Shown here: piece by piece, positions 25,423 through 43,358 of the stretch
Layout: every line of letters starts with the position of its first letter
How positions within the stretch are numbered: position 1 is the first letter of the stretch
Assembly (NCBI RefSeq): GCF_902826655.1
Contig: NZ_CADEFR010000002.1
Span: 124,001 to 188,000, forward strand
Direction: 5' to 3'
DNA from: an uncultured Methylibium sp.
GTDB lineage: Bacteria; Pseudomonadota; Gammaproteobacteria; Burkholderiales; Burkholderiaceae_C
Length of the DNA: 64,000 nt
Translations under genes and position numbers: made by a program
Notes under the pieces: generated by a model
What the model was told of the DNA's origin: nothing
Databases searched by the model: none
The model's input: the letters and a program-made list of their open reading frames with translations, nothing else

Positions 25423-27344
25423 GCATGCTGGTCCGCCAGTACGAAATGCCCTGGCGGCCGGCCTACGAAGCCTACGCCGCGGCAACCTGGCTGCTGGCAA
25501 CAGCATTTTTCGCAACGGTCGGCGTCCTTGGGCATGTGCCGCGCCGACTGGCGCTGCCCCTGGCCCTCTGCTGCTTCGTCTGGGGCATCTTCCGAGGTGC
25601 CCAAGCCCTGCGCACGCTGGTGCTGCGCGCCTCCCTCGGTGGTCGCGGCGTGCAGACCATCACCACGGCCGAGCTGGCGCGCTGGTGCCAGCAGCCCGAC
25701 CAGGTGTTCCTCGGCTTCGGCTTCGACTGGCGCCCTGTCCACGCCCAGCGCCTGTACGAGCTGGCAAAGGTGGACTACCGACAGTTCACCGTCTCGCCGC
25801 GCCTGCTGGCCTGTCTGGGCTACGACAGCCACCCGCAGCCCGACGCGGAGATCGGCCTGCCTTACATCCATGGCGTCGAGCCGAAGGAAGTGCCGCTGCA
25901 CCGGCCCTTGCAGAACTTCGAGGGCGGCACGCTGCTCGTCGGCACCACGCAGTCGGGCAAAGGCGTGGCGCTGGCCAACCTCATCACGCAGGCGGTGCGG
26001 CGCGGTGACGTGGTCATCGTCATCGACCCGAAGAACAGCCGGCGCCTGAAGCGCGTGACGCAGCGCGCCTGCGAAGACTGGCGTGCGCCCGACACCTTCC
26101 TGGAGTTCCACCCCGCCTTCCCCGAGACCGGCGTGCGGCTGGACTTCACCTTCAACTGGCAGAAGCCGACGGAGATAGCGTCGCGCATCCAGTCGATCAT
26201 GCCGCCCGACACGGCCGGCGCTTTCTCGGCCTTCGGCTGGGACGCGGTCAACGTCGTCGTGCAGGGCCTGATCGAGCTCGAGGAGCGGCCAAACCTCGTG
26301 AAGCTGACCAAGTACATCGAAGGTGGCATCGAGCCGGTGCTCGAAGGCACGCTGCGCCGCCACTACGAGCGCACCTTGGGCGCCAACTGGCGCGAGCTGC
26401 CCGAGATGAAGAAGCTGCTGCACGACGCGCACCGCGGCAACCTCAAGCGCCCTTCCGAAGCAGCCAGCGCCGACCTGCTGGCCTTCGTCGCCTACTACGA
26501 GCACCACGTCGCGCAGTCGCAGCGCAACAAGGTGCTGGATGCGCAGGTGCGCACCTTCCGCCACAACCGCGAGCACTACCAGAAGATCACCGCCAACCTG
26601 CTGCCCGTGCTGTCCATGCTCACCTCGGGCGACCTGGGCCCGAGCCTGTCGCCGGATCCGTTCGACGCCGACGACACGCGCCCGATCATGAACTTCGAGA
26701 AGATCGAGCGCGCCGGCCACGTGCTCTACATGTGCCTGGACTCGCTGCCCGACCCGTCGGTGGCTACGGCCATCGGCGCGCTGGCCCTCGCCGACTTGGC
26801 CGCGCGTGCCGGCATGCGATACAACCTCGGCGGCTACCGACGCATCTCGCTGTTTGTCGACGAGGTCTCGAACGTCATCAACCAGCCGTTGATCGAGATC
26901 CTCAACAAGGGCGCTGAGGGCGGCATCTTCACCACCTGCGCCATGCAAACGCTGGCCGACCTGGCCAAGCGCCTGGGCAGCGAGGACGCCGCGCGCATGG
27001 CGCTGGGTAACCTCAACAACCTGATCGCGCTGCGCTCGAAGGACCGGCCGACGCAGGACTTCGTGGTCGAGACCTTCGGCAAGACCGCCATCCACACCGT
27101 GCGCGTGGGCCTGAGCAGCGGCGCCGACGCGCACCTGGGCGACTTCTCGTCGAGCTACTCGACGCAGCTCACCGAGAGCTTCGAGGAGATGGTGCCGGCC
27201 GACGTGCTGGGCAAGCTGCCGAACCTGCAGTACTTCGCGTCGGTGTCGGGCGGGCGGATCATCAAAGGGCGGTTTCCGATCCTGGATGCGGATTGCCCCA
27301 GCACGACATCGAGTGCTCGCCGGCCGGCGGAGTTGACGACATGA
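25419..27344 (+). CDS. traD: conjugative coupling protein TraD
   Basis: A 641-residue protein. Two N-terminal membrane helices (about residues 20-60) anchor it. The P-loop is GTTQSGKG at about residue 175, and Walker B is ISLFVDEVSN at about 478. It is the VirD4-type ATPase that links the relaxosome to the type IV channel. Start ATG overlaps the traI stop, and its own stop overlaps the DUF4400 gene, each as ATGA, so the three are translated as a coupled unit. Confidence 0.9.
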   Translation: MSMLVRQYEMPWRPAYEAYAAATWLLATAFFATVGVLGHVPRRLALPLALCCFVWGIFRGAQALRTLVLRASLGGRGVQTITTAELARWCQQPDQVFLGFGFDWRPVHAQRLYELAKVDYRQFTVSPRLLACLGYDSHPQPDAEIGLPYIHGVEPKEVPLHRPLQNFEGGTLLVGTTQSGKGVALANLITQAVRRGDVVIVIDPKNSRRLKRVTQRACEDWRAPDTFLEFHPAFPETGVRLDFTFNWQKPTEIASRIQSIMPPDTAGAFSAFGWDAVNVVVQGLIELEERPNLVKLTKYIEGGIEPVLEGTLRRHYERTLGANWRELPEMKKLLHDAHRGNLKRPSEAASADLLAFVAYYEHHVAQSQRNKVLDAQVRTFRHNREHYQKITANLLPVLSMLTSGDLGPSLSPDPFDADDTRPIMNFEKIERAGHVLYMCLDSLPDPSVATAIGALALADLAARAGMRYNLGGYRRISLFVDEVSNVINQPLIEILNKGAEGGIFTTCAMQTLADLAKRLGSEDAARMALGNLNNLIALRSKDRPTQDFVVETFGKTAIHTVRVGLSSGADAHLGDFSSSYSTQLTESFEEMVPADVLGKLPNLQYFASVSGGRIIKGRFPILDADCPSTTSSARRPAELTT

Positions 27345-27964: not shown

Positions 27965-28124
27965 GTTGGCTTCGCCGCGCGCTGCGATGTTGCACTCTCC
28001 GAAAGCGCGGGCGGCATCACGGTTGCGAGATCGCTCGGACCACGCCCCGAGTGACACTGCAGAAGCCATCGGCGTCTCCGTGCTACCGTCCCTGCGAGAA
28101 TCGCAGCCGCAGAGAGGGGAGGCC

Positions 28125-30125
28125 ATGCTCGCAAACATCAAAGGGCTGGTGGAGAGGCTGGAACTTACGCCGGCCAAGGCCATGATGCCGCTGTTCGAAG
28201 GCATCTCGAACGCCATCGACGCGATCGAAGAGCACGGCGATGGCTTCTTCAAGCACGCCATCCGCATCCGGCTCGTCGCCGGTCGCGATCTGGCTCATCA
28301 GGGTGGCGATGACACGTTACTGATCGACGGCTTCGACATCACGGATGATGGTGCGGGGTTCCACGATCAGAACCTGGCCTCGTTCAAGGAGGCTCATACG
28401 CTCTCCAAGGTCAAGCTGGGGGGCAAGGGTGTCGGCCGGTTCTCGTTCCTGAAGGTGTTCGCCGCCGTCCATGTGCACAGCGTCTTCCAACGCGGCCAAG
28501 AGCGGTTGTTGAGGGTGTTCGACTTCTCTATCGACGATGAGCTCAAGGGCGCCGACGATCTGCAGCCGACTGAAGGCTCCCTGGGAACCACAGTCTCGGT
28601 GCGATGCATGGCTGCCCGTTATCGAATTGGCTGGCCGAGCGATCCCGTCGTCATTGCCAATCGAATCGTCGCCCACTTCCTGATCCGGTTTGCCGCACGA
28701 TCCTGCCCGACCATGGTTCTCGAGTCCCCCGGTCACGCACCTATTGACCTTGGCCAACTGTTTCAGTCGACGGTTCAACCGCATGTTGAAGAGCGGTTCT
28801 TCGACGTGCTCGGCCATGAGTTCGCACTGCAGGCATATCGCCACCGTGACGGTCGGGCCCGGCATGACTTGCACCTCTGTGCGAATGGCCGAGAGGTCAC
28901 CACTGGAAAGCTGCGAGATCTTCTGCCCGAGTTGCCGGAACGCCTTCTTGACGATGATCAGGAACCCTACACGCTCATTGTTCTGGTCACTGGCATCTAC
29001 CTTGACGATCATGCGAACACAGAGCGAACAAGGATCGCTTTCCAAGCCGACGATGAAGCCGACCTCGACGACACCCTCGTCTCGCGCGTGGCGCTGAACC
29101 GCGGCATCGCTGAGACACTCCGCCCGTTGCTGGCCAGCGATCTGAAATCGACGAACGAAGAGAAGCTGGCTCAGGTCGAGCGATTTGTCGAGCAGGCGCC
29201 GGAGTACCGTGTGTTGACCCACGAACGCTACCGGCACCTGATCGAGCAGCGCGTTCAGCCCGGCCTAAAGGACGATCAACTCGATCAGGCGCTGCTGCAC
29301 ATCCGCCGCGACGTGGAAGACGCCATGCGCAAGGAAGAGCGGCACGTCGCCGCCCTGATCGAAAAGGAGTCCTTCGAGCAGTACCAAGAGCGCATACGCC
29401 GACTCATGGAGGACATGAACGACGTTGGCAAAGCCAAGTTGGCAGACTACGTCGCACATCGCCGGACCATTCTGGATTTGGTCGACCACAGCCTCAAGCG
29501 CGTACAGAACGATGGGACTTATCCGTTCGAGAAGGTTCTGCACAAGATGATCTTCCCGATGGGCGCCACTTCACGCGATGTCTTTCTCGACCAGCAGAAC
29601 CTGTGGATGATTGACGAGCGGTTGTGCTTTCACACCATCCTCACCTCCGACAAGAAGCTCAACAAAGTGCCTGGTCTGGAAGGCTCCTCTGGCAAGGAGC
29701 CGGACATCTTTGCCTTCTTCTACGACACCCCGATTGGCATCGCCGAGCCGGACAACTTGGCGGGCGGCGGGGTCGTGATCATCGAGTTCAAACGACCCGG
29801 CCGCGACGACTACGACAAGGATCCGGCTGACCAGATCATCCAGCGCTTCGTCGAGATCGAGCAGGGCGGCGTTCGAGACATCGACGGTCGTCCAATCAAT
29901 CCTGAACGCATTCGCTACACGGGCTACTTGATCGCAGATCTGACCCCCACCTTGCGTAAGCGGGTCCAGATGCGGTACCACCGTACCGCCGACAACGAGG
30001 GCTTCTTCTACACGTTGCCTGAAGGAAATGGCTGGATAGAGGTCATTTCCTACGACAAGCTGCTGCGTGATGCCAAGCGCCGAAACCGAGTGCTGTTCGA
30101 GAAGCTCGGACTGCACAAACACTGA
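28125..30125 (+). CDS. GHKL ATPase with a C-terminal PD-(D/E)XK nuclease-like domain
   Basis: A 666-residue protein starting MLANIKGLVERLELTPAKAM, preceded by a strong AGGGGAGG. The ATPase has Glu25 and Asn29 (FEGISNAIDAIEE), G1 motif DDGAGF at 74-79 and lid GGKGVGRFSF at 99-108. The middle (about 380-500) is helical. The C-terminus has PDIFAFFY near 526 and VVIIEFKRP near 550, a D...ExK nuclease pattern. It resembles the MORC/MutL-like GHKL proteins seen near restriction genes, here fused to a nuclease. It is convergent with the Res gene and could be a separate one-gene defence system. Confidence 0.72.
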   Translation: MLANIKGLVERLELTPAKAMMPLFEGISNAIDAIEEHGDGFFKHAIRIRLVAGRDLAHQGGDDTLLIDGFDITDDGAGFHDQNLASFKEAHTLSKVKLGGKGVGRFSFLKVFAAVHVHSVFQRGQERLLRVFDFSIDDELKGADDLQPTEGSLGTTVSVRCMAARYRIGWPSDPVVIANRIVAHFLIRFAARSCPTMVLESPGHAPIDLGQLFQSTVQPHVEERFFDVLGHEFALQAYRHRDGRARHDLHLCANGREVTTGKLRDLLPELPERLLDDDQEPYTLIVLVTGIYLDDHANTERTRIAFQADDEADLDDTLVSRVALNRGIAETLRPLLASDLKSTNEEKLAQVERFVEQAPEYRVLTHERYRHLIEQRVQPGLKDDQLDQALLHIRRDVEDAMRKEERHVAALIEKESFEQYQERIRRLMEDMNDVGKAKLADYVAHRRTILDLVDHSLKRVQNDGTYPFEKVLHKMIFPMGATSRDVFLDQQNLWMIDERLCFHTILTSDKKLNKVPGLEGSSGKEPDIFAFFYDTPIGIAEPDNLAGGGVVIIEFKRPGRDDYDKDPADQIIQRFVEIEQGGVRDIDGRPINPERIRYTGYLIADLTPTLRKRVQMRYHRTADNEGFFYTLPEGNGWIEVISYDKLLRDAKRRNRVLFEKLGLHKH

Positions 30126-30134
30126 CGCAACGCA

Positions 30135-30159
30135 CCCTGGCTCATCCGGTCAGCCAGGG
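30135..30159. terminator. bidirectional terminator-like hairpin between convergent genes
   Basis: CCCTGGCT and AGCCAGGG form a perfect 8-bp stem around a 9-base loop. It sits in the 58-bp gap between the GHKL-nuclease gene and the res gene, which converge, so it could end transcription from both sides. Confidence 0.65.
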
Positions 30160-30183
30160 CTGCCGCTGCGGGTGTAAGCATGG

Positions 30184-32973
30184 TCACCCCGTCCTGAACC
30201 AATAGGTCGCGGTCAACGCAGACAAGGTGGCGCTGACCGTCACGGCGTCGTGAGGAATGAGCAGGTACTTCCAGCCCTCTGACCCGTTCGCCGCGGCGAA
30301 CGCGGATGCATGCTCGCACCATGCGGCCGCCGCTCTTGCCTTTGCCTGCACTTCGTCGGTCTGCATGTCGGCGGCCTTCTTGGTCTCGATGAGCAGGTTC
30401 AGACCGTCGGTCGCCGCCACGAAGTCCGGCACGTATTCCGGCTGGTCCGCACCTCGCCGGTAGTAGATGTTGAACTGGCCGGCTACAGGGCGCAGCCACT
30501 TGCGCGCGTCACGTTCGAGGATGACTGCCAGCACCCTCTCGGTGTCGGACTGGAACTTCTGGTAGCTGTAGGCGCACTTGGTGAAGCCACCGTAGACCAA
30601 GGTCGCAATCCGGCTCTTGTCCGGTGGCGCCTGGTGCAGCGGCAGCACGTCACCGTCGGCAGTCACGGCGCCGGGCTTCAGCGGCGTAAAGCCCTGGCTG
30701 ACCACCACTTCCGACTCACCCGGGTCCTCGAAGTAGTGCAACGTCATCTGCGCGTGGATGTTGTCCGCGATGGCCCTGCCCTGGTTGGCCAGCACGTTGT
30801 GCAGCTTCTCGTCGTCGCCCAGGTAGCTGCGGAAGTGCGCCACCGCCTGGGCTGCCAGCTCGTACAACAGCTCGCCGTGTTGGTCGTAAGCGATGTCGTC
30901 GAAGCCGATCAGCTCGCGGACGATGTAATCCTCGGGCCGTCGTTCGGCGACGAACGACGATTGTCCGTACAGCAGCTCCTTGCCCGTCTGCAGCCCACGC
31001 CCCACCAACTGCTGGTCCTGCGGCTGGAAGTTCATGCGGCTCACGTCCAGGCTGAACACCCGGTAGCCGCTGCTCACCGCGCCCTTGGGTTTGACGAGGA
31101 TGCGCGGAATGTCGATGGTGTGCTGCGCCACCAAGTCCGCTGTCTGCTTGACGATTTCTTCGACACTGGGGCCGGCGGGCGGCAGCAGCTGGCCCTGGGC
31201 CGGTGTCACCCGCGCTTGAACGCGCCGCACCAGTTCGGCCTGCACCTCTGGCAGGGTCAAAGACGCCGTGGTGGGGGCCGTCACCCCACCGGCCGCTGCC
31301 GCATCTGCCGGCGCGCCGGGCACGCCAGGCGAGTTTGCCAACCGGCTCATGTCGTTGATGACATCCATCGCGATGGCCGCCACCTGTGCCTGTTCGCCGG
31401 TGTACAGCACCGTCGCAGCCGGCGGCGCAACGTAAGGCGTGCCGGCGGCCGGGGCCACCGGCGCGGTGATGCCCAGCATCGTGTGCAGTGTTGGCGTGAC
31501 CGCCACGCTGCGCAGGCCGGTCCCTGCACCGTCTGGCGGCGCCAGCTTGAGCTGCTTCAGCCGGATCGGCGAATCGCCGCGCCCGGCCTCGTCCACCACC
31601 TCCTGGAACTTGTCGTGCGCAATGATGTTCAGCCGGTCCACGGCCTCGACACCGGTCTTGCGCCCATACGGCAGCCGCAGGCCACGGCCGATGGACTGCT
31701 CGATCAGCGTGCGCGCATTGGCCGCCCGCAACGGCACGATGGTGTAGAGGTTGGTGACGTCCCAGCCTTCCTTGAGCATGTTGACGTGGATGACGATCTC
31801 GGTCGGCTCGTCGTAGCTCTCCACAGCCAGCAGCCTTTGCACGATCTCGTCGCCCTCGGCGCCGCTGGTGGTGCCGCTGTCCACCTGGATCACCTTGCCG
31901 GCGTAGCGCCCGTCGAACAGCTCGACCGAAAGCAGCTTGCTCAGCGCGGCGGCATGCGTGGTGTCGCGCGCTATCACCAGCATGAAGGGCTTCACCGGCT
32001 TCACTTCACCAGAAGCGCCCTTCTGCTGGGCGTAGGTCAGCAGGTGCACCTTGGTCTCTTCGTGCACCCGAACACCGTCCATCAACTTGATGCGCTCCAA
32101 CTGCTCGGCGCTGTGCGCTGCGGCGTCGAAGTTCTGCTGCGTCACAACAGCCGGCTCCTTGACGAAGCCGTCTTCAATGGCCTGCGCCAGCGGGTAGTCC
32201 ATCACCACGTTCTTGAACGGCACAGGGCCCTTGTTGCCCGACCCGCTTTCGGTGAACGGCGTGGCCGTCAACTCCATGGCCAGCAGTGGCTTCAGCTCGT
32301 TCAACGCGCGCACACCGGCACTGGCGCGGTAGCGGTGCGACTCGTCCATCAGCAGCACCAGGTCGGGCAGGCTCGCCAGGTAGTCGAAGTAGCTTTGGCC
32401 CAAGTACTCTGACAAGCGCTTGATGCGCGGCGCCCGGCCGCCGCGCACCTCGGTGTTGATCTTCGAGATGTTGAAGATGTTGATCTGCACCGGCGCGTCG
32501 ATGGCCTGCGAGACCAGGTCGCCGCGCTGCTCGTAGGTTTCGCCGGTGATCACCTCCGGCGCCGCGACCGAGAACTCGGCGATGCCCTTGAACACGTACT
32601 TCGGTGTGCCCGGCGTGAAGTCGCGGATCAGCTTGTCGTAGATCGTCAGGTTGGGCGCAAGCACGAAGAAGTGCTTGTAGCCATAGGCGGCATTCAGGTA
32701 GCTGATGAACGCGCCCATCAGCCGCGTCTTGCCCACGCCCGTGGCCAGCGCGAAACACAGTGACGGGAAGTCGCGCTCGAAGTCGCTCAGGTTCGGAAAC
32801 TGGCCCTTCAGCGCTTCGACCATCGCGGCCAGGTCGCTGGCGTCGCGCGCCTTGTGGTCACGCAACGCCGGCACAGCATCCAGGGCCGCGGCCAGCCGGC
32901 GCAGGCTCTCGGCCTGGGGCTCACGCAGGCTCAGGCGGCCGGCCACCGCTCGCAGGGTTTGCTCCAGACTCAT
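30184..32973 (-). CDS. res: type III restriction-like Res subunit (helicase-nuclease)
   Basis: A 929-residue protein. Walker A is ATGVGKT at 77-83, the DExH box is DESH at 210-213, and helicase motif VI is IGRGLRLPYG. A Pro/Ala-rich segment (about 500-600) separates a C-terminal region with PD (849-850) and ETK (863-865), a PD-(D/E)XK nuclease. Type III Res translocates along DNA and cuts when sites are unmethylated. Its start overlaps the DUF1016 stop by ATGA. The order Mod, DUF1016, Res is not the classical mod-res pair. Confidence 0.87.
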   Translation of the reverse strand: MSLEQTLRAVAGRLSLREPQAESLRRLAAALDAVPALRDHKARDASDLAAMVEALKGQFPNLSDFERDFPSLCFALATGVGKTRLMGAFISYLNAAYGYKHFFVLAPNLTIYDKLIRDFTPGTPKYVFKGIAEFSVAAPEVITGETYEQRGDLVSQAIDAPVQINIFNISKINTEVRGGRAPRIKRLSEYLGQSYFDYLASLPDLVLLMDESHRYRASAGVRALNELKPLLAMELTATPFTESGSGNKGPVPFKNVVMDYPLAQAIEDGFVKEPAVVTQQNFDAAAHSAEQLERIKLMDGVRVHEETKVHLLTYAQQKGASGEVKPVKPFMLVIARDTTHAAALSKLLSVELFDGRYAGKVIQVDSGTTSGAEGDEIVQRLLAVESYDEPTEIVIHVNMLKEGWDVTNLYTIVPLRAANARTLIEQSIGRGLRLPYGRKTGVEAVDRLNIIAHDKFQEVVDEAGRGDSPIRLKQLKLAPPDGAGTGLRSVAVTPTLHTMLGITAPVAPAAGTPYVAPPAATVLYTGEQAQVAAIAMDVINDMSRLANSPGVPGAPADAAAAGGVTAPTTASLTLPEVQAELVRRVQARVTPAQGQLLPPAGPSVEEIVKQTADLVAQHTIDIPRILVKPKGAVSSGYRVFSLDVSRMNFQPQDQQLVGRGLQTGKELLYGQSSFVAERRPEDYIVRELIGFDDIAYDQHGELLYELAAQAVAHFRSYLGDDEKLHNVLANQGRAIADNIHAQMTLHYFEDPGESEVVVSQGFTPLKPGAVTADGDVLPLHQAPPDKSRIATLVYGGFTKCAYSYQKFQSDTERVLAVILERDARKWLRPVAGQFNIYYRRGADQPEYVPDFVAATDGLNLLIETKKAADMQTDEVQAKARAAAAWCEHASAFAAANGSEGWKYLLIPHDAVTVSATLSALTATYWFRTG

Positions 32974-34142
32974 TCTTTCCCTTCCCTCGGCTTCTTCTTG
33001 GCGGGCGCTGCCGCGGGCAACAACTGCCGCAGCTCGCGCTTCAGTTCCTGCTGCAGCTGCTTCTCGGTCGGCAGGTGCAGTTGGTAGCGGGTGGCGAAGA
33101 TGTTGCGCTCCTGCTGTTCACCCAGGGTGTACTTCACGACGGCGTCGTTCTTGTCGGGGCACAGCACCAGGCCGACGGTCGGGTTGTCGCCCTCGGTGCG
33201 GCGCTCGCGGTCGTAGTAGTTGACGTAGAACTGGATCTGCCCCAGGTCGGCGTGTGTCAGCTTGCCCACCTTCAGGTCCACCAGCACGTAGCACTTCAGC
33301 ACTGCGTGATAGAAAACCAGGTCGATGAAGAAGTGGTCGCCGTCCAGCGTGATGCGCTGCTGCCGCGCGACGAATGCGAAGCCCGTGCCCAGCTCCAGCA
33401 GAAAGTGCTGCAGGTTCTCGATCAGCGCCTGCTCGAGCTGCGACTCGACGAGCCGGTGCGACTCCGGCAACCCCAGGAACTCCATCACCAGCGGGTCTCG
33501 CAGCACATCCAGGGGCTTTGTCACTTCGTGCCCGCGGCTTGCCAGTCGCATCACACCGGCCTTGTCGCGGCTCTTGGCCAAGCGTTCGAACAACAGGCTG
33601 CCCGCCTGCCGCGACAGTTCACGCACCGACCAGCCCTGCTTGACGGCTTCGATCTCGTAGAAGTCGCGCGCGCCCTGATTGCCCACGCGCAGCAGGCAGC
33701 GGTAGTGGCTCCATGAAAGATCGGGGTGCAAGCGGCCCGGCCGCGGCGGTGCTGTCCCGCTCGTGGCAGCCGATTTCCGAGACACCGTCTCGGAAATGGC
33801 CGGCAGTGCCGATTTCCGAAGCACTGTCTCGGAAATGAGTTGCGGGTAGGCCAGGTAGAACTGCCGAAAGGCTTCGAGGTTGTCTACGGAATAGCCGCGT
33901 CCGTAGTTGCGCGTCAAACGCAACGACAGCTGGGCCAGCAAGCGGGCACCGTAGCCCGCGCGGCGCTGGCCACGCTGCTCCTCCTCGACGATCTCACGGC
34001 CCACCAGCCAATTGGCCAGCACCTGCGTGGTGTTGACGGTGCGCGCGATGCCCGTACGGGCGGCATCCAGAATCTCGAGCACGCGGCCATACAGGGCCGG
34101 CGTTGCCTTGTTTGCCTTCGGGTCGCCTGGGGCTTGCGGCAT
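32970..34142 (-). CDS. DUF1016 (YhcG-type) PD-(D/E)XK nuclease
   Basis: A 390-residue protein. The N-terminal DUF1016 winged-helix region contains ILDAARTGIARTVNTTQVLANWLVGREI and YGRGYSVDNLEAFRQFY; the C-terminal nuclease domain has FFIDLVFYH and YVLVDLKVG, the D...DxK active-site pattern. The ATG at 34142 lies one base after the Mod stop region, and its stop overlaps res. It is common in type I and type III restriction loci as an accessory gene. An in-frame repeat of ISETV-xRKSA near residue 120 comes from a DNA palindrome. Confidence 0.85.
   Translation of the reverse strand: MPQAPGDPKANKATPALYGRVLEILDAARTGIARTVNTTQVLANWLVGREIVEEEQRGQRRAGYGARLLAQLSLRLTRNYGRGYSVDNLEAFRQFYLAYPQLISETVLRKSALPAISETVSRKSAATSGTAPPRPGRLHPDLSWSHYRCLLRVGNQGARDFYEIEAVKQGWSVRELSRQAGSLLFERLAKSRDKAGVMRLASRGHEVTKPLDVLRDPLVMEFLGLPESHRLVESQLEQALIENLQHFLLELGTGFAFVARQQRITLDGDHFFIDLVFYHAVLKCYVLVDLKVGKLTHADLGQIQFYVNYYDRERRTEGDNPTVGLVLCPDKNDAVVKYTLGEQQERNIFATRYQLHLPTEKQLQQELKRELRQLLPAAAPAKKKPREGKE
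33773..33836. repeat. duplicated palindrome inside the DUF1016 gene
   Basis: A perfect 11-bp-arm palindrome (ATTTCCGAGAC-ACC-GTCTCGGAAAT, 33773-33797) is followed 14 bp later by a second, imperfect copy (33812-33836). It encodes the repeated ISETV(S/L)RKSA stretch. Such a repeat could arise by slippage and vary between strains. Confidence 0.75.
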
Positions 34143-34143
34143 G

Positions 34144-35817
34144 TCAGCTGTCGGCCGGGTCGAACAGGCCGGTCTGCCGCGCATCCACCTTGCCGGCCCG
34201 TGCGCCGGCAGGCCGGCCGGCTTCCTGGCGAGCCTGCGGCAGGTTCTCGACGTTCAGGCTGTAGTCGTCGTGCCCCCACTCGCACTTCTGCAGCACCATC
34301 TTCGGAATCTTCTTCACCGTCAGGTTCGGGAAGCGGTTGGCGATGGCCTCGGCACTCAAGCGGAATGCGCCGCAACACACCAGCAGCGTGCGCTTCGGGC
34401 CGACCTCATCGGACAAGGCCTGCAAGGCCTCGGCACTGAGTGTCTGCGTCGTGACGTAGATGAAATCGGTCTCGGTGCTGTGGCCGTGCTGCCAGTAGGC
34501 ATCGGCGCTCGGCGCGTAGGTGAAGCCCTCGAGCTTGGCCACGGCCGCTGCCAGCATCTCGGCGTTGTATTCGCGGTTGATCACCCACTGGCCGAAGCGA
34601 TCCTGCTGCAACAGGCTTGGCGCCAGGCGGTAGTAACGGAAACCTCCGCCGCCCTTCCAGCCGGTGCTCTCGGTGACGCCGCCCGCGTCATCGCCGTCGA
34701 TCACCTTCTTCAGCCGCGGGATGATGTGGGTGTGGCAGTGCTCGCCCAGTTCCACCATGATCCAGCGGCGGCCCATCTTGTGGGCGACGGCGCCGGTTGT
34801 GCCGGAGCCGGCAAAGGAGTCGAGAACCAAATCGCCGGGGTTGCTGGCGATATGAAGAATTCGGTGAATCAGCCTCTCCGGCTTTGGCGTATCGAATGCA
34901 TTCTCGCGGCCGAAAATCTCGTGAATCTCTTTCTTTGCCTCGTCGTTGTGGCCAACCTCCTCGTGCGGCCACCATGTCGACGGCACCAAGCCGTCGACCT
35001 CAGACAGGTAGCGAATAAAGCGCGGCACGCCATCGCCATCTTGGCCAAACCAGAAACGACCCTCCTTTCGCAGGCGCAGGTACTCTGCTTCTAGAGTTGC
35101 CCAGTGTCGCCCCTCGGGCGGAAAGTGCTCCCGCCCGCTCGGGCCGACGATCTTGTACATCTGGTTCGGGCGAAAGCCAGCACCTGTGAACGAGATCGAT
35201 TGCCATGCTCCTCTTGGATCGTTGTTCGGGTTGCGGTACGGTGCCTTTGTCTTGGCATCTAGGTCGAGGCGATTTCGAGTTGCCTTGAATCGTTCGACAT
35301 CACGCGCGTAGACAAGGATATGGTCGTGCGCGTTTCCGAATGCGGAGTTGTTGTCGCGCGCATAACGCTTCTGCCAAACGCAATTGGCAACAAAGGTCTT
35401 GCGACCGAAGACTTCGTCGCACAGGACTCGCAAGTAGTGCGCTTCGTTGTCGTCAATAGTGATCCATAGTGAACCATCATCCGACATGAGTCGCTTGATG
35501 ATCTCCAACCGATCACGCATGAGGCCGAGCCATATCGAGTGCTCCAAGCCGTCGTCATAGTGCGTGAAAGCACTTCCGGTGTTGTACGGAGGGTCGATGA
35601 ATACGCACTTCACCTGGCCAGCGAACTCCTGCTCCAAGGCTTTGAGCGCCAGCAGGTTGTCGCCGAAGATCAGGCGGTTGTCGAAGATGTCGTGGTCGGT
35701 CACCCGCTGCGCAGCGTGGTGGCTGCGGGCCGGGTCTTCGAGCAGAACACGCGGCTCCAGCTTCGGGCGCGCGTCCTTGCCGATCCAGGTCAGTTCCAGC
35801 CGCTGCTTTTGGCTCAT
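34144..35817 (-). CDS. mod: type III-like adenine/cytosine-N4 DNA methyltransferase Mod
   Basis: A 557-residue protein. DPPY at 75-78 (motif IV) precedes FAGSGTT at 335-341 (motif I), the beta-class order usual for type III Mod. The region between them (about 150-300) should hold the target recognition part. It modifies the same site the Res protein would use to spare host DNA. The ATG overlaps the kwaB stop as ATGA. The 80 C-terminal residues are basic and Ala-rich. Confidence 0.88.
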   Translation of the reverse strand: MSQKQRLELTWIGKDARPKLEPRVLLEDPARSHHAAQRVTDHDIFDNRLIFGDNLLALKALEQEFAGQVKCVFIDPPYNTGSAFTHYDDGLEHSIWLGLMRDRLEIIKRLMSDDGSLWITIDDNEAHYLRVLCDEVFGRKTFVANCVWQKRYARDNNSAFGNAHDHILVYARDVERFKATRNRLDLDAKTKAPYRNPNNDPRGAWQSISFTGAGFRPNQMYKIVGPSGREHFPPEGRHWATLEAEYLRLRKEGRFWFGQDGDGVPRFIRYLSEVDGLVPSTWWPHEEVGHNDEAKKEIHEIFGRENAFDTPKPERLIHRILHIASNPGDLVLDSFAGSGTTGAVAHKMGRRWIMVELGEHCHTHIIPRLKKVIDGDDAGGVTESTGWKGGGGFRYYRLAPSLLQQDRFGQWVINREYNAEMLAAAVAKLEGFTYAPSADAYWQHGHSTETDFIYVTTQTLSAEALQALSDEVGPKRTLLVCCGAFRLSAEAIANRFPNLTVKKIPKMVLQKCEWGHDDYSLNVENLPQARQEAGRPAGARAGKVDARQTGLFDPADS

Positions 35818-36767
35818 GCGCCGGCGCCCGGCTGGGAGACGGCCTTCTTGGCCGATGAATCGAACACCTCGTCGTTGATGGGCGAGCGCAGGCGGTCGTT
35901 GTTCAGCAGTTTCAGCAACAGGTCCATGGTTTCTTCTTCGACGACGATCTTGCCGCCTTCGATCTTGAGGTTCCAGCCCTCATCGCGACACACGCGCATC
36001 AGGCGCTCGATGTAGGTGGGGCTGCTGTAATAGCCGGCGTTCTTGATCGCCGCCAGCTTGCGCAGGTGGTGCTGGTTCTCGCCTACGTAGGCCCGGATGG
36101 GTTCCACGTCGCTCAGAAATGCCATCGACGCGAACTCTTCCAACAGTTCGCGGCTCTTGGCCTTCATGCCCTCGCGGAAGTTCATCGACGACTCGAAGGC
36201 CGACTTGCTGGCGATGAAGGTGGTGCCCGCGAAGACGAAGAAATCGAAGCGCGGGTCGATCATGAAGACCTCTTCGTCTTCGACATCGACGAGCTTCTGA
36301 TCCTGGAAGTACAGCGTCTTGGTCCTGACAGCCTTGCGCGGGCTGTTCAGCGTGTTGATCTTGCTCCACGCGTAGAGGTGTTCGCCGTCCTTCTCGAACA
36401 GCACCACGTAGGCAAACGAGCCCAGCAACTCGGCGTGGCTCTTGGCGCGCGGGTTGTCGAAGCCCTGGCCGATGGCGTCACGAACCTTCGTGAAGTCGGT
36501 GGTGTCGGCATCCAGGGTCAGCAGTGATTCGCCGGGGTCGGCGTTGCTGAAATCGTAGGGCTCCAGGCGGAACTCCCGGTCCTGCACCTGCGCCTTCACG
36601 TAGCGCTTCAGCCGCCGCTCCAGCTTCTTGTCGATGCTGACCCGCAGCACGTTGTAGACAAACGGGGCCTGCGCCGGCTTGCGGTGCACCACCCAGAAGC
36701 TGGTGGCCCAAGGCGCCAGGTCTGTCGCCTTCAGCTTCTTGAGCCGTTGGGCTTCTTTACCGCTCAT
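35814..36767 (-). CDS. kwaB: Kiwa protein KwaB (DUF4868)
   Basis: A 317-residue protein, close to the 315 of E. coli KwaB. The DUF4868 signature is clear: VFMIDPRFDFFVFAGTTFIA, then ASKSAFESSMNFREG, RKLAAIKNAGYYSSPTYIER and LLKLLNNDRLRSPI. In Kiwa, KwaB acts inside the cell with KwaA after phage entry, and DNA binding has been reported. The ATG at 36767 overlaps the kwaA end by 11 bp and the stop overlaps mod. No nuclease motif is seen. Confidence 0.86.
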   Translation of the reverse strand: MSGKEAQRLKKLKATDLAPWATSFWVVHRKPAQAPFVYNVLRVSIDKKLERRLKRYVKAQVQDREFRLEPYDFSNADPGESLLTLDADTTDFTKVRDAIGQGFDNPRAKSHAELLGSFAYVVLFEKDGEHLYAWSKINTLNSPRKAVRTKTLYFQDQKLVDVEDEEVFMIDPRFDFFVFAGTTFIASKSAFESSMNFREGMKAKSRELLEEFASMAFLSDVEPIRAYVGENQHHLRKLAAIKNAGYYSSPTYIERLMRVCRDEGWNLKIEGGKIVVEEETMDLLLKLLNNDRLRSPINDEVFDSSAKKAVSQPGAGA

Positions 36768-37356
36768 GCTCACTCCCTGCCTCACCTGCGGTTTCGGGCT
36801 CGGCCGCCACATAAAGGTAATGGGCCAGCCGCTCGAACGTGTATGTGCCACCTATTTTCAACGGAATGCGCGTGATCACCATCGCCTGCAATTCCGTGGT
36901 GCCGCGTTTGAAGGTGGCGTCGATCAGCATGTAGCCCGCCATCGCCAGCACGGGGTTGACCAGCACCGTCTGCGTGCGGTAGGCAATCACGAACATCATG
37001 CCCATGAAGATCAACAGGCTGGCCACGGTGGGCCAGTCGGCGAGGTCGATGCGCACCACGGAAAGCACATAGGGAATGGTGTAGCCGAACATCTCGCCCG
37101 ACTTGTTGGCGGCCTTGCTCACCTGCACCTGCAGGCCCTCGCGAACGCTGCTCATGGTTCGCAATACCACCACGCAACTCAAGACCGCCATCACCAGAAG
37201 CCCGCCGAACCACCAGGGGTTCTTGGGCACCGGCAGGTTGCCGCTGACGTCCAGGTCTTTGATGGCCAAGATCAGCAGCAGCGGCGCATAGGCACTGATG
37301 AACACCACCAACGCCACCCAGGGGCGCAGCCGCAGCGACGGATCCGGCGTGCTCAT
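36757..37356 (-). CDS. kwaA: Kiwa membrane protein KwaA
   Basis: A 199-residue protein with four predicted helices: VALVVFISAYAPLLLILAI, WWFGGLLVMAVLSCVVVL, VASLLIFMGMMFVIAY and NPVLAMAGYMLIDATF. This is the architecture of KwaA, the membrane sensor of the Kiwa system, which works with the downstream KwaB. Its ATG overlaps the SNF2 stop as ATGA. Sequence similarity to the type KwaA cannot be measured here; the call rests on topology, size and the adjacent DUF4868 gene. Confidence 0.78.
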   Translation of the reverse strand: MSTPDPSLRLRPWVALVVFISAYAPLLLILAIKDLDVSGNLPVPKNPWWFGGLLVMAVLSCVVVLRTMSSVREGLQVQVSKAANKSGEMFGYTIPYVLSVVRIDLADWPTVASLLIFMGMMFVIAYRTQTVLVNPVLAMAGYMLIDATFKRGTTELQAMVITRIPLKIGGTYTFERLAHYLYVAAEPETAGEAGSEHER

Positions 37357-40313
37357 TGCATGGCCCACTCGCAGCGCAGCAGTGTCTGGGTGCTCACCTG
37401 TTGCTCGAGCTGCAGTTCCAGTGCGTCGATGAGCCCGTCGCGTTTGGCCTGGATTTCGTCCTGCCGCGCAAACAGTTCACGGCGGCGCCTGTCGCGGGCC
37501 GCCTCCAGGTCGCGCTGCTCACGCTGCACGGCCAGCTTTTCCGCCAGCGTCGCCGCGCCCTTGCTGCGCGTGCGCACCTCCTTGATGCGCCGCTGCAGGT
37601 CAGCCAGTTGTTGCTCGAGGCTGGCGCGCTGGTCGTCGGCCCAGGCGTCCAGTTTTTCGGTCTCGGCCGTGAAGAGCTTCAGGTTGCGCGCCTCCACGGC
37701 CCCCAGGACCTGGGCCTGCTGGCGCGACAGTTCGGCCGTCAGTGCTTCAGTGAGGGTGGAGTCCTGGGACAGGCACGGTTCGGCCGCGCCGGGCAGCGCC
37801 AGGAGCCGATCTGCGACATCCGGTTCCAGCACCGTGCCGCCAACCGTGGCGGCCACCAGAAGGTGCTCTTCGGCGCTGCCCAGGGACTCCACACGCAGGC
37901 ACTGCACCACGCAGTGCCCCTGCTCACCACGCAGCGATTCCAGCACCGACACCTTGGCGTTGTAGGCCGCGTAGTCCAGCTGAAGGCGCCGCGGCAACAG
38001 GGAGGCCCGCTTGGCAAGGTCGATCAGGTGCTGTGCCAGCGGATGCTGCAGGCGGTAGACATGGGCTTCTTCGCTGCGGCGCGGCAATTCATAGCGCCCG
38101 AGCGGGATTGCTGCCTCGGTGCCAGCGATGCCCGACTGGCTTGCATCGCCCACCGGCTGGCCCGGCAAGGCGTGCAAGGTGAACCCGTTGCCCTCCGGGT
38201 CGAACTGCGCGTGGCTGCCGAGCATGCCGCGGGTCAGGCGCATCAGCAGCCGTTCCATGCGACCCAACGCCGCCGTCGCGTCGGCCTGGGCCACCTTCAG
38301 GCGCTCCTGCACCTCTTCGTCGAAGTTCTCCAGCAGCGCGCGCCGCGCGCCGAGCATCGCATCGCTGATCTCGCCGGCCAGGTCCAGCTGCAACTGCTCG
38401 AATGCGGTGTGAATCTCGTTGGGGTGGCGGCAGTTCTGGTAGATGTCGGCGATGCGGCGTTCGAAGTCCACGCCTGACTCCAGCGCACCGAGCACCTCGT
38501 CGCTGGCGCCGAACACGCCGTCGAAGAGCTTGAACTTCTGGTCCAGCAGCTGGAAGACACGGCGGTCGGCTTCGTTGTCGCGGTTGACGAAGTTCACCAC
38601 CACCACGTCGTGCTTCTGGCCGTAGCGGTGGCAGCGGCCGATGCGTTGCTCGATGCGTTGCGGGTTCCACGGCAGGTCGTAGTTGATGACCAGCGAGCAG
38701 AACTGCAGGTTGATGCCCTCGGCGCCCGCCTCGGTGGCGATCATGATCTTGCCGTTGTCGCGGAAGTGGTCCACCAGTGCAGCGCGGGTGTCTGCTGCAC
38801 GCGAGCCGGTGATGCGGCTGGTGCCGCGGTGCTGCTCCACCCACTCGGCATGCAGGCGGCGCGCCAGCGGGTCGCTGTTGCTGCCGTTGAAGAGCACCAC
38901 CCCGACGGCGTGTTCGGTTTGCCCCAACAGGGCAAGCAGGTAGTCCTGTGTCCGGCGCGACTCGGTGAAGATGATGGCCTTCTGCGCTGCGCCCAGCTCT
39001 TTCAGCCGGCCGAAGGCCACGTCGAGCGCTTTCAGCAAGGCCTGGCCCTTGGCGTTGTCGGTGATCGACAAGGCCAGGTCGCGAAACCCTTCGAGATCGG
39101 CAATCTCGGCTTGGACGGCGGCGCGCTCCTGAACCGTCTTGGCACGTTCGGCTGCGATGCCGGCATCTTCTGCCGCTTCAGAGGCTGCTGTTTCGTCGGC
39201 TGTCTCGTCCAGGCTTTCGTAGTCGGCGTCGAGCGCTTCGCTCAGGGTCTCGGACTGCGGTGCCGCCAGCTGGTCGTGCAGAGATTCCTGCAGCCGGCGG
39301 ATGAGGGTGTCGAGCGCCCCGCCAATGGCGAATGAACTGGATGCCAGCAGCTTGCGCAACACCAGGGTGATGAGCTGCCGCTGAGCGTTGGGCAGGGCGT
39401 AGAGGCGGTCACGCTGCAGGTACTCGGAGACCAGTTCGTACAGGCGCACCTCGTCGGCGCCGGGCTTGAATTCCTCGAGCAGCGGAATGCGCCGCGTGTA
39501 CTTGACATAGGCCTCGACCTGCCGGCGCAGGGTGCGTTTGCAGACCGGCCCGATGCGGTGCTTCAGCGCTGCGAAGCTGGCTTCGTCCCGCAACGCGCCG
39601 AACTGTTGGCGGAAGCTGTCCAGATCACCGAACACGCGGTCGTCGATGAAGCTGACGAGCCCGTACAGTTCCAGCAGCGTGTTCTGCAGCGGTGTGGCCG
39701 TGAGCAGAACCTTGCGCGATGCCGCGAGTGCATCGCGCAACAGGTTGGCAGTCTTGTTTTCAGGCTTGTAGACGTTGCGCAGCCGGTGCGCTTCGTCAAT
39801 GACCACCAGGTCCCAAGGCACCGCGGCCAGCTCGCGCGCCTTGCCTGCCGCGAACTGGTAGGAGCAGATGACGATGCTCGCGGCGCCCGGGCCGTTGCCA
39901 TCACGGCCTGCCGCGACATCGAACGGGTTGGTGCAACCTTCCTTCAAGGCCAGGCGGAATGAGCGGGACTCCAGGATCACGGCCGGCAAGGCGAACTTGT
40001 CGGCCAGTTCCTGGTGCCACTGCTTGCGCAGGTTTGCGGGGGCAATGATCAGCAGCCGGCGTCGGCGCTCGGCCCACCGCTGTGCCAGCAACAGGCCCGC
40101 CTCGATGGTCTTTCCAAGGCCCACTTCGTCAGCCAGGATCACGCCCTTGGACAAAGGGTTGCCGGCGGCAAAAAGCGCAGCGTCCACCTGGTGCGGATTC
40201 AGATCGACCTGGGCGTCGAAGAGCGCGCCCGCCATGCGATCCATCGAGCCCGCCGCGCCGCGCAGCGTGAGCCGATGCGCGAAATAGGCGAGTTGATGGG
40301 GGCTGTAGGTCAT
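37353..40313 (-). CDS. SNF2/RapA-like helicase heading the defence operon
   Basis: A 986-residue protein. Walker A is DEVGLGKT at 62-69 and DEAH at 173-176, followed by TATPLQN; the second lobe has NYDLPWNPQRIEQRIGRCHR and YGQKHDV. The C-terminal 400 residues contain a charged coiled-coil (about 870-970). Related helicases occur in RapA-type transcription recycling and in DISARM/BREX-like defence loci. It is the first gene of the six-gene operon, and its stop overlaps kwaA. No PLD or DUF1998 gene is present, so it is not DISARM. Confidence 0.85.
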   Translation of the reverse strand: MTYSPHQLAYFAHRLTLRGAAGSMDRMAGALFDAQVDLNPHQVDAALFAAGNPLSKGVILADEVGLGKTIEAGLLLAQRWAERRRRLLIIAPANLRKQWHQELADKFALPAVILESRSFRLALKEGCTNPFDVAAGRDGNGPGAASIVICSYQFAAGKARELAAVPWDLVVIDEAHRLRNVYKPENKTANLLRDALAASRKVLLTATPLQNTLLELYGLVSFIDDRVFGDLDSFRQQFGALRDEASFAALKHRIGPVCKRTLRRQVEAYVKYTRRIPLLEEFKPGADEVRLYELVSEYLQRDRLYALPNAQRQLITLVLRKLLASSSFAIGGALDTLIRRLQESLHDQLAAPQSETLSEALDADYESLDETADETAASEAAEDAGIAAERAKTVQERAAVQAEIADLEGFRDLALSITDNAKGQALLKALDVAFGRLKELGAAQKAIIFTESRRTQDYLLALLGQTEHAVGVVLFNGSNSDPLARRLHAEWVEQHRGTSRITGSRAADTRAALVDHFRDNGKIMIATEAGAEGINLQFCSLVINYDLPWNPQRIEQRIGRCHRYGQKHDVVVVNFVNRDNEADRRVFQLLDQKFKLFDGVFGASDEVLGALESGVDFERRIADIYQNCRHPNEIHTAFEQLQLDLAGEISDAMLGARRALLENFDEEVQERLKVAQADATAALGRMERLLMRLTRGMLGSHAQFDPEGNGFTLHALPGQPVGDASQSGIAGTEAAIPLGRYELPRRSEEAHVYRLQHPLAQHLIDLAKRASLLPRRLQLDYAAYNAKVSVLESLRGEQGHCVVQCLRVESLGSAEEHLLVAATVGGTVLEPDVADRLLALPGAAEPCLSQDSTLTEALTAELSRQQAQVLGAVEARNLKLFTAETEKLDAWADDQRASLEQQLADLQRRIKEVRTRSKGAATLAEKLAVQREQRDLEAARDRRRRELFARQDEIQAKRDGLIDALELQLEQQVSTQTLLRCEWAMQ

Positions 40314-40639
40314 GGCGTCAGGTGTTTCCAGTTTGATTGTCGGCGCTGGGCCGTCAGCACCAGATCGTCAACAACATCGAGGTGTCGATCGACCATGCCG
40401 CGGCGTCTGCTGCCGACTGAATGGACCGAAGCAGCATACTGTATAAAACATCAGCCGTGCGGCATTGCGGGTCGCGCCGCGCTGAAGAACGACCGGCCTT
40501 GCAGGGTGCGGGCTTTCAGTGCCGAAACCCCCCTCTCATTGGCTGCATTCCGGGCCGCTCCGCGCGGACGTGCCGCCTACCCTTCCGGTCACCCGCTCCA
40601 AAGAGCACCGCCCTCAGTCGATGACCCAGGGATGCGCCC
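40314..40639. other. 326-bp divergent control region
   Basis: It separates the defence operon (minus) from the resumed transfer genes (plus). An AT-rich patch at 40436-40455 stands out from the GC-rich surroundings and includes a LexA-box-like sequence. No supported gene is present. Confidence 0.5.
40439..40454 (-). promoter_or_regulatory. LexA-box-like sequence upstream of the defence operon
   Basis: CTGTATAAAACATCAG reads as CTG-N10-CAG with an AT-rich core, close to the enterobacterial CTGTATATATATACAG consensus. It lies about 126 bp before the SNF2 start. One of the flanking positions (T for A before CAG) is off consensus. SOS control is possible but unproven. Confidence 0.4.
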
Positions 40640-42661: not shown

Positions 42662-43018
42662 ATGACCACCACCACCCTTGCCGTTCCCCCGCTCACCCGC
42701 CGCGCAGCACGCCGGCCGTGGACCATCGCTGCCCTGCTGTGCCTGATCGCACTCGGCCTGGGCATCGCCTTCCCCGGCCATGCGCTGGACCTGGTCGCCT
42801 TCACCGGCATCACCGGCCCGCTGACTTCCGCGCTCACCGCCATCGCCAGCCTCGGCCCCGGCATCAAGGCGCTGGTCGGCTTCGTGGGCTTCGTCGTCGC
42901 GCTGATCTCGCTGGCGGCTCTGCGCAACTTCGGGCCGGTGCTGTTCTACGTCGGCCTGGCGATCTTCGCCGCCGTCGGCCTGGTGATCGCCGGCGCGATC
43001 ATGGGCGCGGTTGTTTGA
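42662..43018 (+). CDS. traA: F-type pilin TraA
   Basis: A 118-residue protein. A long leader (about 42 residues) ends with FPGHALD, then two hydrophobic segments: IKALVGFVGFVVALISLAAL and VLFYVGLAIFAAVGLVIAGA. This two-helix layout with a cleavable leader is that of TraA/VirB2 pilins, and the position before traL supports it. It would form the conjugative pilus. Confidence 0.78.
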   Translation: MTTTTLAVPPLTRRAARRPWTIAALLCLIALGLGIAFPGHALDLVAFTGITGPLTSALTAIASLGPGIKALVGFVGFVVALISLAALRNFGPVLFYVGLAIFAAVGLVIAGAIMGAVV

Positions 43019-43058
43019 GCCGCCGCGGCCCGCCCTGCACGCACCGCCCGGAGGCTCC

Positions 43059-43358
43059 ATGCACGCCGACACCTACATCCCGCGGCGCCTCGACGACCAG
43101 TGGAAGATCGGCTTCTGGGATGTCGACGTCGCCGCGCCCGCGCTGCTGGGCCTGTTCATGGGCTACATGTCGGGCTCGAAGCTCTCGTTCGCGCTGTGCT
43201 TCGCCGCCGGGCTGTTCACCTCGCGCTGGATCGCCCGCATCAAGGCCGACAAGCACCCGGCCTTCGCGATCCACTGGCTCTACTGGCACCTGCCGACCAG
43301 CCCGCTGACCGCGATGCGCGCGACCCCGCCCTCGCACATCCGCCGCATGGTCGGCTGA
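43059..43358 (+). CDS. traL: type IV pilus assembly protein TraL
   Basis: A 99-residue protein with YIPRRLDDQWKIGFWDVDVA followed by two close hydrophobic segments, the pattern of F-type TraL/VirB3. GGAGG lies 6 bp before the ATG. It sits in the inner membrane with TraE. The gene order traA-L-E-K-B is conserved in F-type systems. Confidence 0.85.
   Translation: MHADTYIPRRLDDQWKIGFWDVDVAAPALLGLFMGYMSGSKLSFALCFAAGLFTSRWIARIKADKHPAFAIHWLYWHLPTSPLTAMRATPPSHIRRMVG

What the first reader, a model, noticed from the sequence alone, without database searches (positions are those of the whole stretch)
30184..40313. Kiwa (kwaA-kwaB) nested inside a type III-like restriction operon with a SNF2 helicase
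Six minus-strand genes run SNF2 helicase, kwaA, kwaB, mod, DUF1016 nuclease and res. Four junctions are ATGA overlaps, one is an 11-bp overlap, and the mod-DUF1016 pair is separated by one base. Such coupling suggests a single co-evolved unit rather than chance neighbours. Kiwa is known as a two-gene stand-alone system. Here it lies between the helicase and the methyltransferase, so membrane sensing by KwaA, DNA action by KwaB and methylation-guided cleavage could be combined. The SNF2 helicase could serve either part. I know of no description of this composite.
Basis: partly seen in the sequence, partly recalled or inferred. Interest (0 to 1): 0.85.

Follow-up and report, generated by a model that had tools for sequence, protein, structure and literature searches.

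The report
Kiwa cassette nested in restriction operons
A two-gene membrane defence against phages (Kiwa) sits inside a restriction-modification operon on a mobile element, and related genomes suggest that it is a swappable insert that settles in such operons again and again rather than part of one fixed six-part machine.

Summary
The six minus-strand genes and their tight junctions are real (three ATGA overlaps, not four). KwaA and KwaB match the solved Kiwa proteins by profile and by predicted fold. Relatives change the interpretation. SNF2-mod-res is a restriction core that exists without kwaAB: 0 of 12 fetched plasmid loci and 0 of 9 readable chromosomal operons other than the window carry it. 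The SNF2-mod interval often holds other defence genes instead (AIPR, AAA plus subtilase, GmrSD, AbiEi and others); mod-res holds YhcG, RhuM or zeta toxin. KwaA and KwaB co-vary (r 0.95); neither tracks the core, but SNF2 does not track mod or res either. Yet kwaAB is not there by accident: of 28 relatives found by KwaB sequence alone, 10 lie with SNF2, mod or res genes and 11 with type I hsd genes, 8 of these between hsdS and hsdR. The two nearest relatives stand alone. A sibling element in the same genome lacks the whole 12.7-kb insert. Best reading: an exchangeable Kiwa cassette layered on restriction. Embedded second-line genes in R-M operons are known in kind (PrrC); Kiwa in that role I did not find in the papers I could search.

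The parts
37353..40313 (-). SNF2 helicase, first gene of the restriction core; closest to DrmD (DISARM) models but below their equivalog cut-off
   Evidence: Walker A at residue 65 and DEAH at 173
36757..37356 (-). kwaA: membrane protein of Kiwa (199 aa)
   Evidence: PADLOC KwaA 178 bits; PDB KwaA E 1.5e-9 by profile; fold match 9mrx_A E 4.7e-9; three separate hydrophobic stretches (four 19-mers over 1.6, the last two overlapping)
35814..36767 (-). kwaB: DUF4868 DNA-binding effector of Kiwa (317 aa)
   Evidence: PF16162 149 bits; PDB KwaB E 4.7e-6 by profile; fold match 9mrx_D E 4.4e-11
34144..35817 (-). mod: beta-class N6/N4 DNA methyltransferase with a variable central stretch (probable target recognition domain)
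   Evidence: PF01555, PADLOC type III MTase 724 bits; DPPY at 75 before FAGSG at 335; residues 161-320 variable among 16 relatives
32970..34142 (-). DUF1016/YhcG PD-(D/E)XK-type gene, occupant of the mod-res slot
   Evidence: PF06250 193 bits and PF17761 125 bits; RhuM or zeta toxin in its place in relatives
30184..32973 (-). res: type III-like restriction helicase with a C-terminal PD...ETK motif
   Evidence: PF04851 77 bits, PADLOC REase_III 628 bits; PDF at 849 and ETK at 863; P849, D850, E863 and K865 invariant in 7 sequences
28125..30125 (+). Convergent GHKL-ATPase-like gene with a C-terminal PD...EFK stretch (ORF opens at 27966; homologues align from residue 54); second cargo at the same site, inside the operon in L015 and L022
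   Evidence: 69% identical to the L015 gene and 52% to the L022 gene; weak HATPase_c match, E 0.037, below cut-off; motif
27966..40639 (.). Whole insert between two genes of the conjugative element
   Evidence: In sibling element L146 (own genome, contig C6) the flanking homologues are about 160 bp apart
24204..27344 (+). TraD-like coupling protein of an SXT-type element, flank of the insert
   Evidence: TIGR03743 676 bits, cut-off 366
43011..43358 (+). TraL, start of the conjugation block on the other side
   Evidence: TIGR02762 103 bits, cut-off 31

Best explanation
SNF2-mod-res is a stand-alone type III-like restriction core. Mod marks host DNA; Res, probably helped by SNF2, attacks unmarked DNA. 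The intervals between core genes accept exchangeable defence cassettes that are co-expressed through short overlaps. Here the SNF2-mod interval holds kwaAB and the mod-res interval holds DUF1016. KwaA (membrane) and KwaB (DNA binding) would form their own membrane complex at the phage entry site and act on incoming DNA in parallel with restriction, covering phages whose DNA is modified or that carry antirestriction proteins. Shown here: families, folds, junctions, cargo exchange, independent history of kwaAB and core, recurrence inside R-M operons. Inferred: one transcript, restriction activity, and parallel (layered) rather than physically coupled action.
For: Core without kwaAB: 0 of 12 plasmid loci fetched from the hits (tables; none of these records is among the 9 with a KwaB match); 0 of 9 chromosomal operons other than the window with SNF2, mod and res all readable, from 22 RES-bearing genomes among 369. 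Of those 9, 8 have other genes between SNF2 and mod and 1 (L094, mod split in two ORFs) has none. Cargo identities. kwaAB is scattered on the core trees: RES 5 changes (shuffled mean 6.3), MOD 5 (6.3), SNF2 6 (7.9). Pairwise identities over 7 loci: KwaA-KwaB r 0.95; KwaB-MOD 0.19, KwaB-RES 0.44, KwaB-SNF2 -0.24. L020 and L022 share 94% in KwaB but 53% in SNF2. Stand-alone near relatives L011 and L012. KwaB-only search: 21 of 28 loci beside R-M core genes on the same strand.
Against: The core is not a tight unit by the same test: MOD-RES r 0.44, MOD-SNF2 0.04, RES-SNF2 -0.20, so only KwaA-KwaB is clearly a pair, and 7 loci (two with broken or partial genes) are few. Core trees have 25-30 labelled rows and the label is mildly clustered (23 of 300 shuffles as low for SNF2), so some co-inheritance is possible. 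KwaAB of this clade are strongly tied to R-M operons, and the ATGA overlap of kwaB with mod recurs (window, L013, L014, L016, L017, L039), which functional coupling would also give. No functional data.
Confidence: 0.68

Rival explanations
1. Guardian: the restriction complex holds KwaAB in check or informs it, and phage antirestriction proteins release or trigger it, as for PrrC in EcoprrI.
For: Position inside two unrelated R-M types. Neighbours in the same slots include AAA_13 (the family of PrrC/RloC, recalled), RhuM and AbiEi genes; published work links PrrC-like and RhuM genes in R-M operons to second-line duty (PMC3710099, PMC12707154, passages).
Against: Close relatives L011 and L012 have no R-M core gene within 10 kb. 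KwaAB does not co-vary with the core. Kiwa elsewhere is described as two-component (PMC12904381, passages).
Confidence: 0.17
2. One integrated machine: Kiwa senses entry at the membrane and hands DNA to SNF2, Mod and Res.
For: Tight junctions and recurrence of the SNF2-kwaA-kwaB-mod order in 9 loci including the window.
Against: The core is complete without kwaAB and kwaAB exists without the core; related kwaAB lie in type I operons, with other partners.
Confidence: 0.07
3. Chance neighbours in a defence island of a conjugative element.
For: The insert lies at one site of an SXT-type element and also holds a convergent gene. The family-wide control is only suggestive: KwaB 5 of 13, HamA 1 of 15, one-sided Fisher p 0.056; 4 of 12 and p 0.10 without the window.
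Against: Same slot in 9 SNF2-type loci (window included; Pseudomonadota, one unassigned MAG and one Acidobacteriota MAG) and in a second R-M type; on the KwaB tree R-M linkage needs 5 changes against 13.7 shuffled, 0 of 500 as low.
Confidence: 0.08

Closest known systems
Kiwa (KwaA-KwaB), structures 9mrx, 9mrg, 9nyu, 9o0i
   Same: Both proteins, their adjacency and their folds
   Different: Below NCBIfam equivalog cut-offs; nested between restriction genes
Type III restriction-modification (Mod-Res)
   Same: Beta-class Mod with variable middle, ResIII helicase with a PD-(D/E)XK-like end
   Different: PF19778 endonuclease domain not detected in this Res (it is in L045); an SNF2 gene upstream in the window and 9 other readable operons (absent in L039, L088, L091, L096); genes inserted between core genes
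DISARM class 1 (DrmD)
   Same: SNF2 protein best matches DrmD models
   Different: DrmD cut-off not met (682.6 of 950 bits); no DrmA or DrmB gene seen among the seven proteins scanned
EcoprrI-PrrC and other R-M operons with embedded second-line genes (PMC3710099, PMC12707154, passages)
   Same: A second defence gene within an R-M operon; one described group even has an SNF2 helicase among the R-M components
   Different: The insert is a two-gene membrane system, not an anticodon nuclease or HEPN toxin
ARMADA (PMC12458937, passages)
   Same: BrxHII/RapA-type SNF2 helicase with a methyltransferase
   Different: ARMADA has a YprA helicase and a PglX-like methylase; neither seen here

Membership tests
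Kiwa | KwaB of the DUF4868/PF16162 family | tested here: met
   149 bits against 26.3; PDB KwaB by profile and fold
Kiwa | KwaA membrane protein of the solved fold, directly upstream | tested here: met
Kiwa | NCBIfam equivalog score for KwaA and KwaB | tested here: not met
   40.5 of 100 and 48.6 of 200 bits: same family, not the same equivalog
Kiwa | Anti-phage activity, KwaA-KwaB supercomplex | not testable with these tools
   no bench data
Type III restriction-modification | Mod methyltransferase of the beta class with a target recognition domain | tested here: met
   (the variable middle is taken as the recognition domain)
Type III restriction-modification | Res with SF2 helicase motifs and an endonuclease motif | tested here: met
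Type III restriction-modification | PF19778 endonuclease domain of classical Res | tested here: not met
   absent from the Pfam list of the window Res at E 0.001
DISARM class 1 | DrmD equivalog score | tested here: not met
   682.6 of 950 bits (NF038318), 269 of 610 (NF038317)
DISARM class 1 | drmA and drmB in the operon | tested here: not met
   no gene of the seven scanned has them as best match (only the best 25 rows are shown for three proteins; SNF2 has a weaker cross-match to a DrmA model)
R-M operon with embedded second-line gene (PrrC kind) | Defence gene between R-M genes in one orientation | tested here: met
R-M operon with embedded second-line gene (PrrC kind) | Insert held inactive by the R-M enzyme and released when it is inhibited | not testable with these tools
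   needs infection assays

The most novel reading that the evidence does not exclude
A large branch of Kiwa is a dedicated companion of restriction enzymes: it entered at least two unrelated R-M types (SNF2-mod-res and hsdMSR) and works as a restriction guardian at the membrane, catching at the entry site the genomes that escape restriction because they are modified or carry antirestriction DNA mimics.
Probability: 0.25. Interest if true: 0.82.

Novelty: new variant of a known kind. Interest (0 to 1): 0.62.

Why it matters
Kiwa is described as a two-gene system. Here a KwaAB lineage lives inside restriction operons of two types, next to a changing set of other defence genes. That gives a testable question (does restriction gate Kiwa or merely accompany it?) and a place to look for new defence genes: the SNF2-mod interval already holds proteins with no Pfam match at E 0.01 (L020 583 aa, L054 527 aa, L086 359 aa).

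Tried and rejected
Considered and rejected: a fixed six-gene machine (core and kwaAB separate); DISARM membership (cut-off and partner genes missing); pure chance (recurrence).

Led nowhere or weak: the search for related loci with the single KwaB found none among 36 candidate stretches; the PDB search with single sequences found nothing although profiles did; viral contigs gave 1 relative, L103, close to L026. The HamA control is only suggestive, and its reference genes were partly taken from KwaB loci, which favours KwaB; some loci on both sides are cut by contig ends. My first reading of L023-L038 as 'stand-alone' (label 'alone') was wrong: most are type I embedded, and one search uses the corrected labels. 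Left unlabelled: L023 and L036. Labelled 'none' there although doubtful: L028 (hsd genes next door on the other strand), L035 (methylase-like neighbours by eye, not scanned), L040 and L120 (cut close to the gene by a contig end). Dropped as duplicate: L043 (same contig as L032). Left out of the recount as undeterminable: L085, L087, L089, L092, L095; with them labelled 'none' the changes were 6, 5 and 6. L013 has SNF2 and mod each in two ORFs; its mod is not in the MOD tree, and its larger pieces were used. Two structure models are moderate (mean pLDDT 76 and 83); TM-scores to Kiwa are 0.51-0.56 for KwaB and 0.54-0.73 for KwaA. In two further elements (L144, L145) no TraD homologue lay on the fetched stretch, so they say nothing on the insertion site.
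Full report
What is there. The window holds SNF2 (37353-40313), kwaA (36757-37356), kwaB (35814-36767), mod (34144-35817), DUF1016/YhcG (32970-34142) and res (30184-32973), all on the minus strand. The five junctions read from the DNA are three ATGA overlaps, one 11-bp overlap and one single-base gap; the finding counts four ATGA overlaps. KwaB passes the Pfam cut-off (149 against 26.3 bits). KwaA has no Pfam hit, but a 19-sequence profile finds solved KwaA at E 1.5e-9, and the KwaB profile finds solved KwaB at E 4.7e-6. Predicted models of both have Kiwa structures as their only PDB matches at E 0.001 or better, 6 chains for KwaB and 7 for KwaA. Both fall below the NCBIfam equivalog cut-offs, so this is a divergent Kiwa branch.

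The core. Mod is a beta-class methyltransferase (DPPY before FxGxG) with a variable middle, residues 161-320, in 16 relatives (the last 37 residues vary as much). Res has helicase motifs and a PD...ETK end whose P, D, E and K are invariant in 7 sequences. SNF2 best matches DISARM DrmD models, below cut-off (682.6 of 950 bits). RES of this type is in 22 of 369 genomes drawn from the class, the window's own included. I fetched stretches for 20 of the other 21 (G209 was not fetched, its RES starts 344 bases from a contig end) and read them by ORF and phmmer. In 10 operons SNF2, mod and res are all readable: the window, L080, L081, L082, L083, L084, L086, L090, L093, L094 (SNF2 of L081 reaches the contig end; mod of L094 is in two ORFs). 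Only the window has kwaAB. L039 (G328) has kwaAB-mod-res but no SNF2. L088, L091 and L096 have no SNF2, L097 is degenerate, and the rest are cut by contig ends. Of 12 plasmid loci fetched on SNF2 or RES hits, 0 have kwaAB (tables; these gene tables are incomplete, but none of the records is among the 9 with a KwaB match). L050, L052 and L100 are bare SNF2-mod-res.

The slots. In the SNF2-mod interval I found AIPR (L080; annotated in L048), AAA with subtilase (L013; AAA with an unscanned protein of like size and start in L082, L090 by its start only, and L096), M78 peptidase with DUF4411 (L014; L020 similar by its first residues), KilA-N (L017), AAA_21 with DUF4276 (L081; annotated in L051), SMC-like AAA (L022, L083), AAA_13 (L084), HepT with a nucleotidyltransferase domain (L082), AbiEi (L090), two AlbA_2 proteins (L093), GmrSD (L096, L099), a PLD nuclease (L053), SIR2 with HerA (L102) and an annotated Abi protein (L047). 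L096 has no SNF2, so there the interval is upstream of mod only. In the mod-res interval: YhcG (window, L020, L081, L088), RhuM (L014, L015, L022), zeta toxin (L086, L089), GmrSD/DUF262 (L102; annotated in L049), PIN (L089, L096). Sources. Three SNF2-mod proteins have no Pfam match at E 0.01 (L020 583 aa, L054 527 aa, L086 359 aa).

kwaAB moves separately. On the core trees the kwaAB label needs 5 changes for RES (26 rows, shuffled mean 6.3, 44 of 300 as low), 5 for MOD (25 rows, 6.3, 43 of 300) and 6 for SNF2 (30 rows, 7.9, 23 of 300). Over 7 loci the identities of KwaA and KwaB correlate at 0.95; KwaB with MOD 0.19, RES 0.44, SNF2 -0.24; MOD with RES 0.44, MOD with SNF2 0.04, RES with SNF2 -0.20. 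So KwaA-KwaB is a pair, KwaAB does not follow the core, and the core itself, SNF2 above all, is shuffled too. L020 and L022 share 94% in KwaB and 90% in RES, but 76% in MOD and 53% in SNF2. The window's nearest KwaB relatives, L012 and L011 (68% and 67%), have no core or hsd gene within 10 kb.

kwaAB prefers restriction operons. The KwaB-only search of genome contigs returned 28 loci. Same-strand R-M core genes lie beside kwaAB in 21: 10 with SNF2, mod or res (L013-L022; L019 keeps only a 152-residue mod piece; L016 and L018 are two contigs of one Acidobacteriota MAG) and 11 with hsd genes (L024-L027, L029-L034, L038). Seven lack them: L011, L012, L023 (an hsdS-like piece by eye), L028 (hsd genes next door on the other strand), L035, L036 (cut), L037. 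In L024, L025, L027, L029, L030, L031, L034 and L038 kwaAB lies between hsdS and hsdR; Pfam confirms HsdM, HsdS and HsdR in L026 and L030. The query alignment held one type I-linked KwaB (L007, the same locus as L032), so this set is centred on two lineages and is not a sample of all Kiwa. A less biased sample, PF16162 in 398 genomes of the phylum, gave 13 KwaB genomes, 12 over the cut-off. Five have a same-strand R-M core gene within 6 kb, the window among them, against 1 of 15 for HamA in the same genomes (one-sided Fisher 0.056; 0.10 without the window). Two of the 13 (G378, G639) lie within 400 bases of a contig start. Of the five, G425 and G620 are divergent KwaB with hsdM and hsdR on either side, G444 is L032, and G403 follows a type III mod-res pair; the KwaA of G403, G425 and G620 is presumed from position. 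On a 46-row KwaB tree R-M linkage needs 5 changes (shuffled 13.7, 0 of 500 as low; 27 of 44 labelled rows linked). Several long branches make deep placements unsure.

Where it sits. The flanks are SXT-type conjugation genes (TraD, TraL, TraE, TraC). In a second element of the same genome (L146) the homologues of the flanking ORFs at 27293 and 40640 are about 160 bp apart; in the window they are 12.7 kb apart. The insert therefore also holds the convergent gene at 28125-30125, a GHKL-like protein with a PD...EFK stretch, whose relatives lie inside the operon in L015 and L022 (69% and 52% identical). That SXT elements have a known insertion hotspot near traJ-traL is recalled, not looked up.

How it most likely works. 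From passages of a review (PMC12904381): KwaA tetramers in the inner membrane carry KwaB dimers, sense infection at the membrane, and KwaB binds entering DNA and blocks replication without cutting. Another paper (PMC11514479, passages) reports a RecBCD-dependent pathway triggered by RNA polymerase inhibition, with KwaB active without KwaA, so the trigger is not settled. I infer that Kiwa acts beside, not through, restriction. Mod protects the host; Res with SNF2 attacks unmarked DNA; Kiwa meets the DNA at the entry point. The two lines should fail to different phage counter-measures, which would reward carrying both on one transcript. A guardian role like that of PrrC is the main rival; the position fits, but the free exchange and the stand-alone relatives do not call for it.

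Novelty. R-M operons with embedded toxins or guardians are known: PrrC in EcoprrI, and many HEPN, RhuM and paraMORC neighbours, one group with an SNF2 helicase among its R-M components (PMC3710099 and PMC12707154, passages). Kiwa and R-M genes in one defence island are on record for Streptococcus thermophilus (PMC11514479, passages). ARMADA pairs an SNF2-type helicase with a methylase but has other partners (PMC12458937, passages). My ten paper searches (listings) and the passages read showed no description of Kiwa nested inside R-M operons or of the SNF2-mod-res slots. The main Kiwa paper (PMC12348683) is not held, so this is no proof of absence. I therefore rate it a new variant of a known kind.

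Noticed in passing
L045:1413-10033 (G403): A GmrSD-like gene (by first residues), then a type III mod-res pair (PF19778 present), followed directly by a presumed kwaA and a PF16162 kwaB: a third R-M type next to Kiwa.
   Followed up: partly
window 27966-30125: GHKL-ATPase-like protein with a C-terminal PD...EFK stretch; 55 plasmid records carry relatives, many of the listed ones annotated only as ATP-binding protein. A candidate defence gene of its own.
   Followed up: partly
L146 and window 24204-50077: The genome holds two related SXT-type conjugative elements; at this site only the one in the window has the 12.7-kb insert.
   Followed up: partly
L101 (Klebsiella plasmid p19-10_01): SNF2 followed by a 1046-aa methyltransferase and an 1120-aa DEAD/DEAH protein; SNF2 relatives of about 44% recur on many enterobacterial plasmids. 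A related core.
   Followed up: no
L030:10930-12642: DarT and a macro-domain gene sit with kwaAB in the same hsdS-hsdR interval.
   Followed up: partly
L020:4920-6671, L054:7573-9156, L086:5034-6113: Slot proteins without any Pfam match at E 0.01: candidate new defence genes.
   Followed up: no
L125:7944-10996 (annotation) and L042:9438-12275: KwaB beside a cytosine methyltransferase gene on the other strand (annotated in L125; by first residues in L042): perhaps yet another R-M neighbour. Counted as not linked (L042) or not used (L125).
   Followed up: no
L116 (G723): A distant kwaA-kwaB pair among what look, by first residues only, like phage tail and lysis genes.
   Followed up: no
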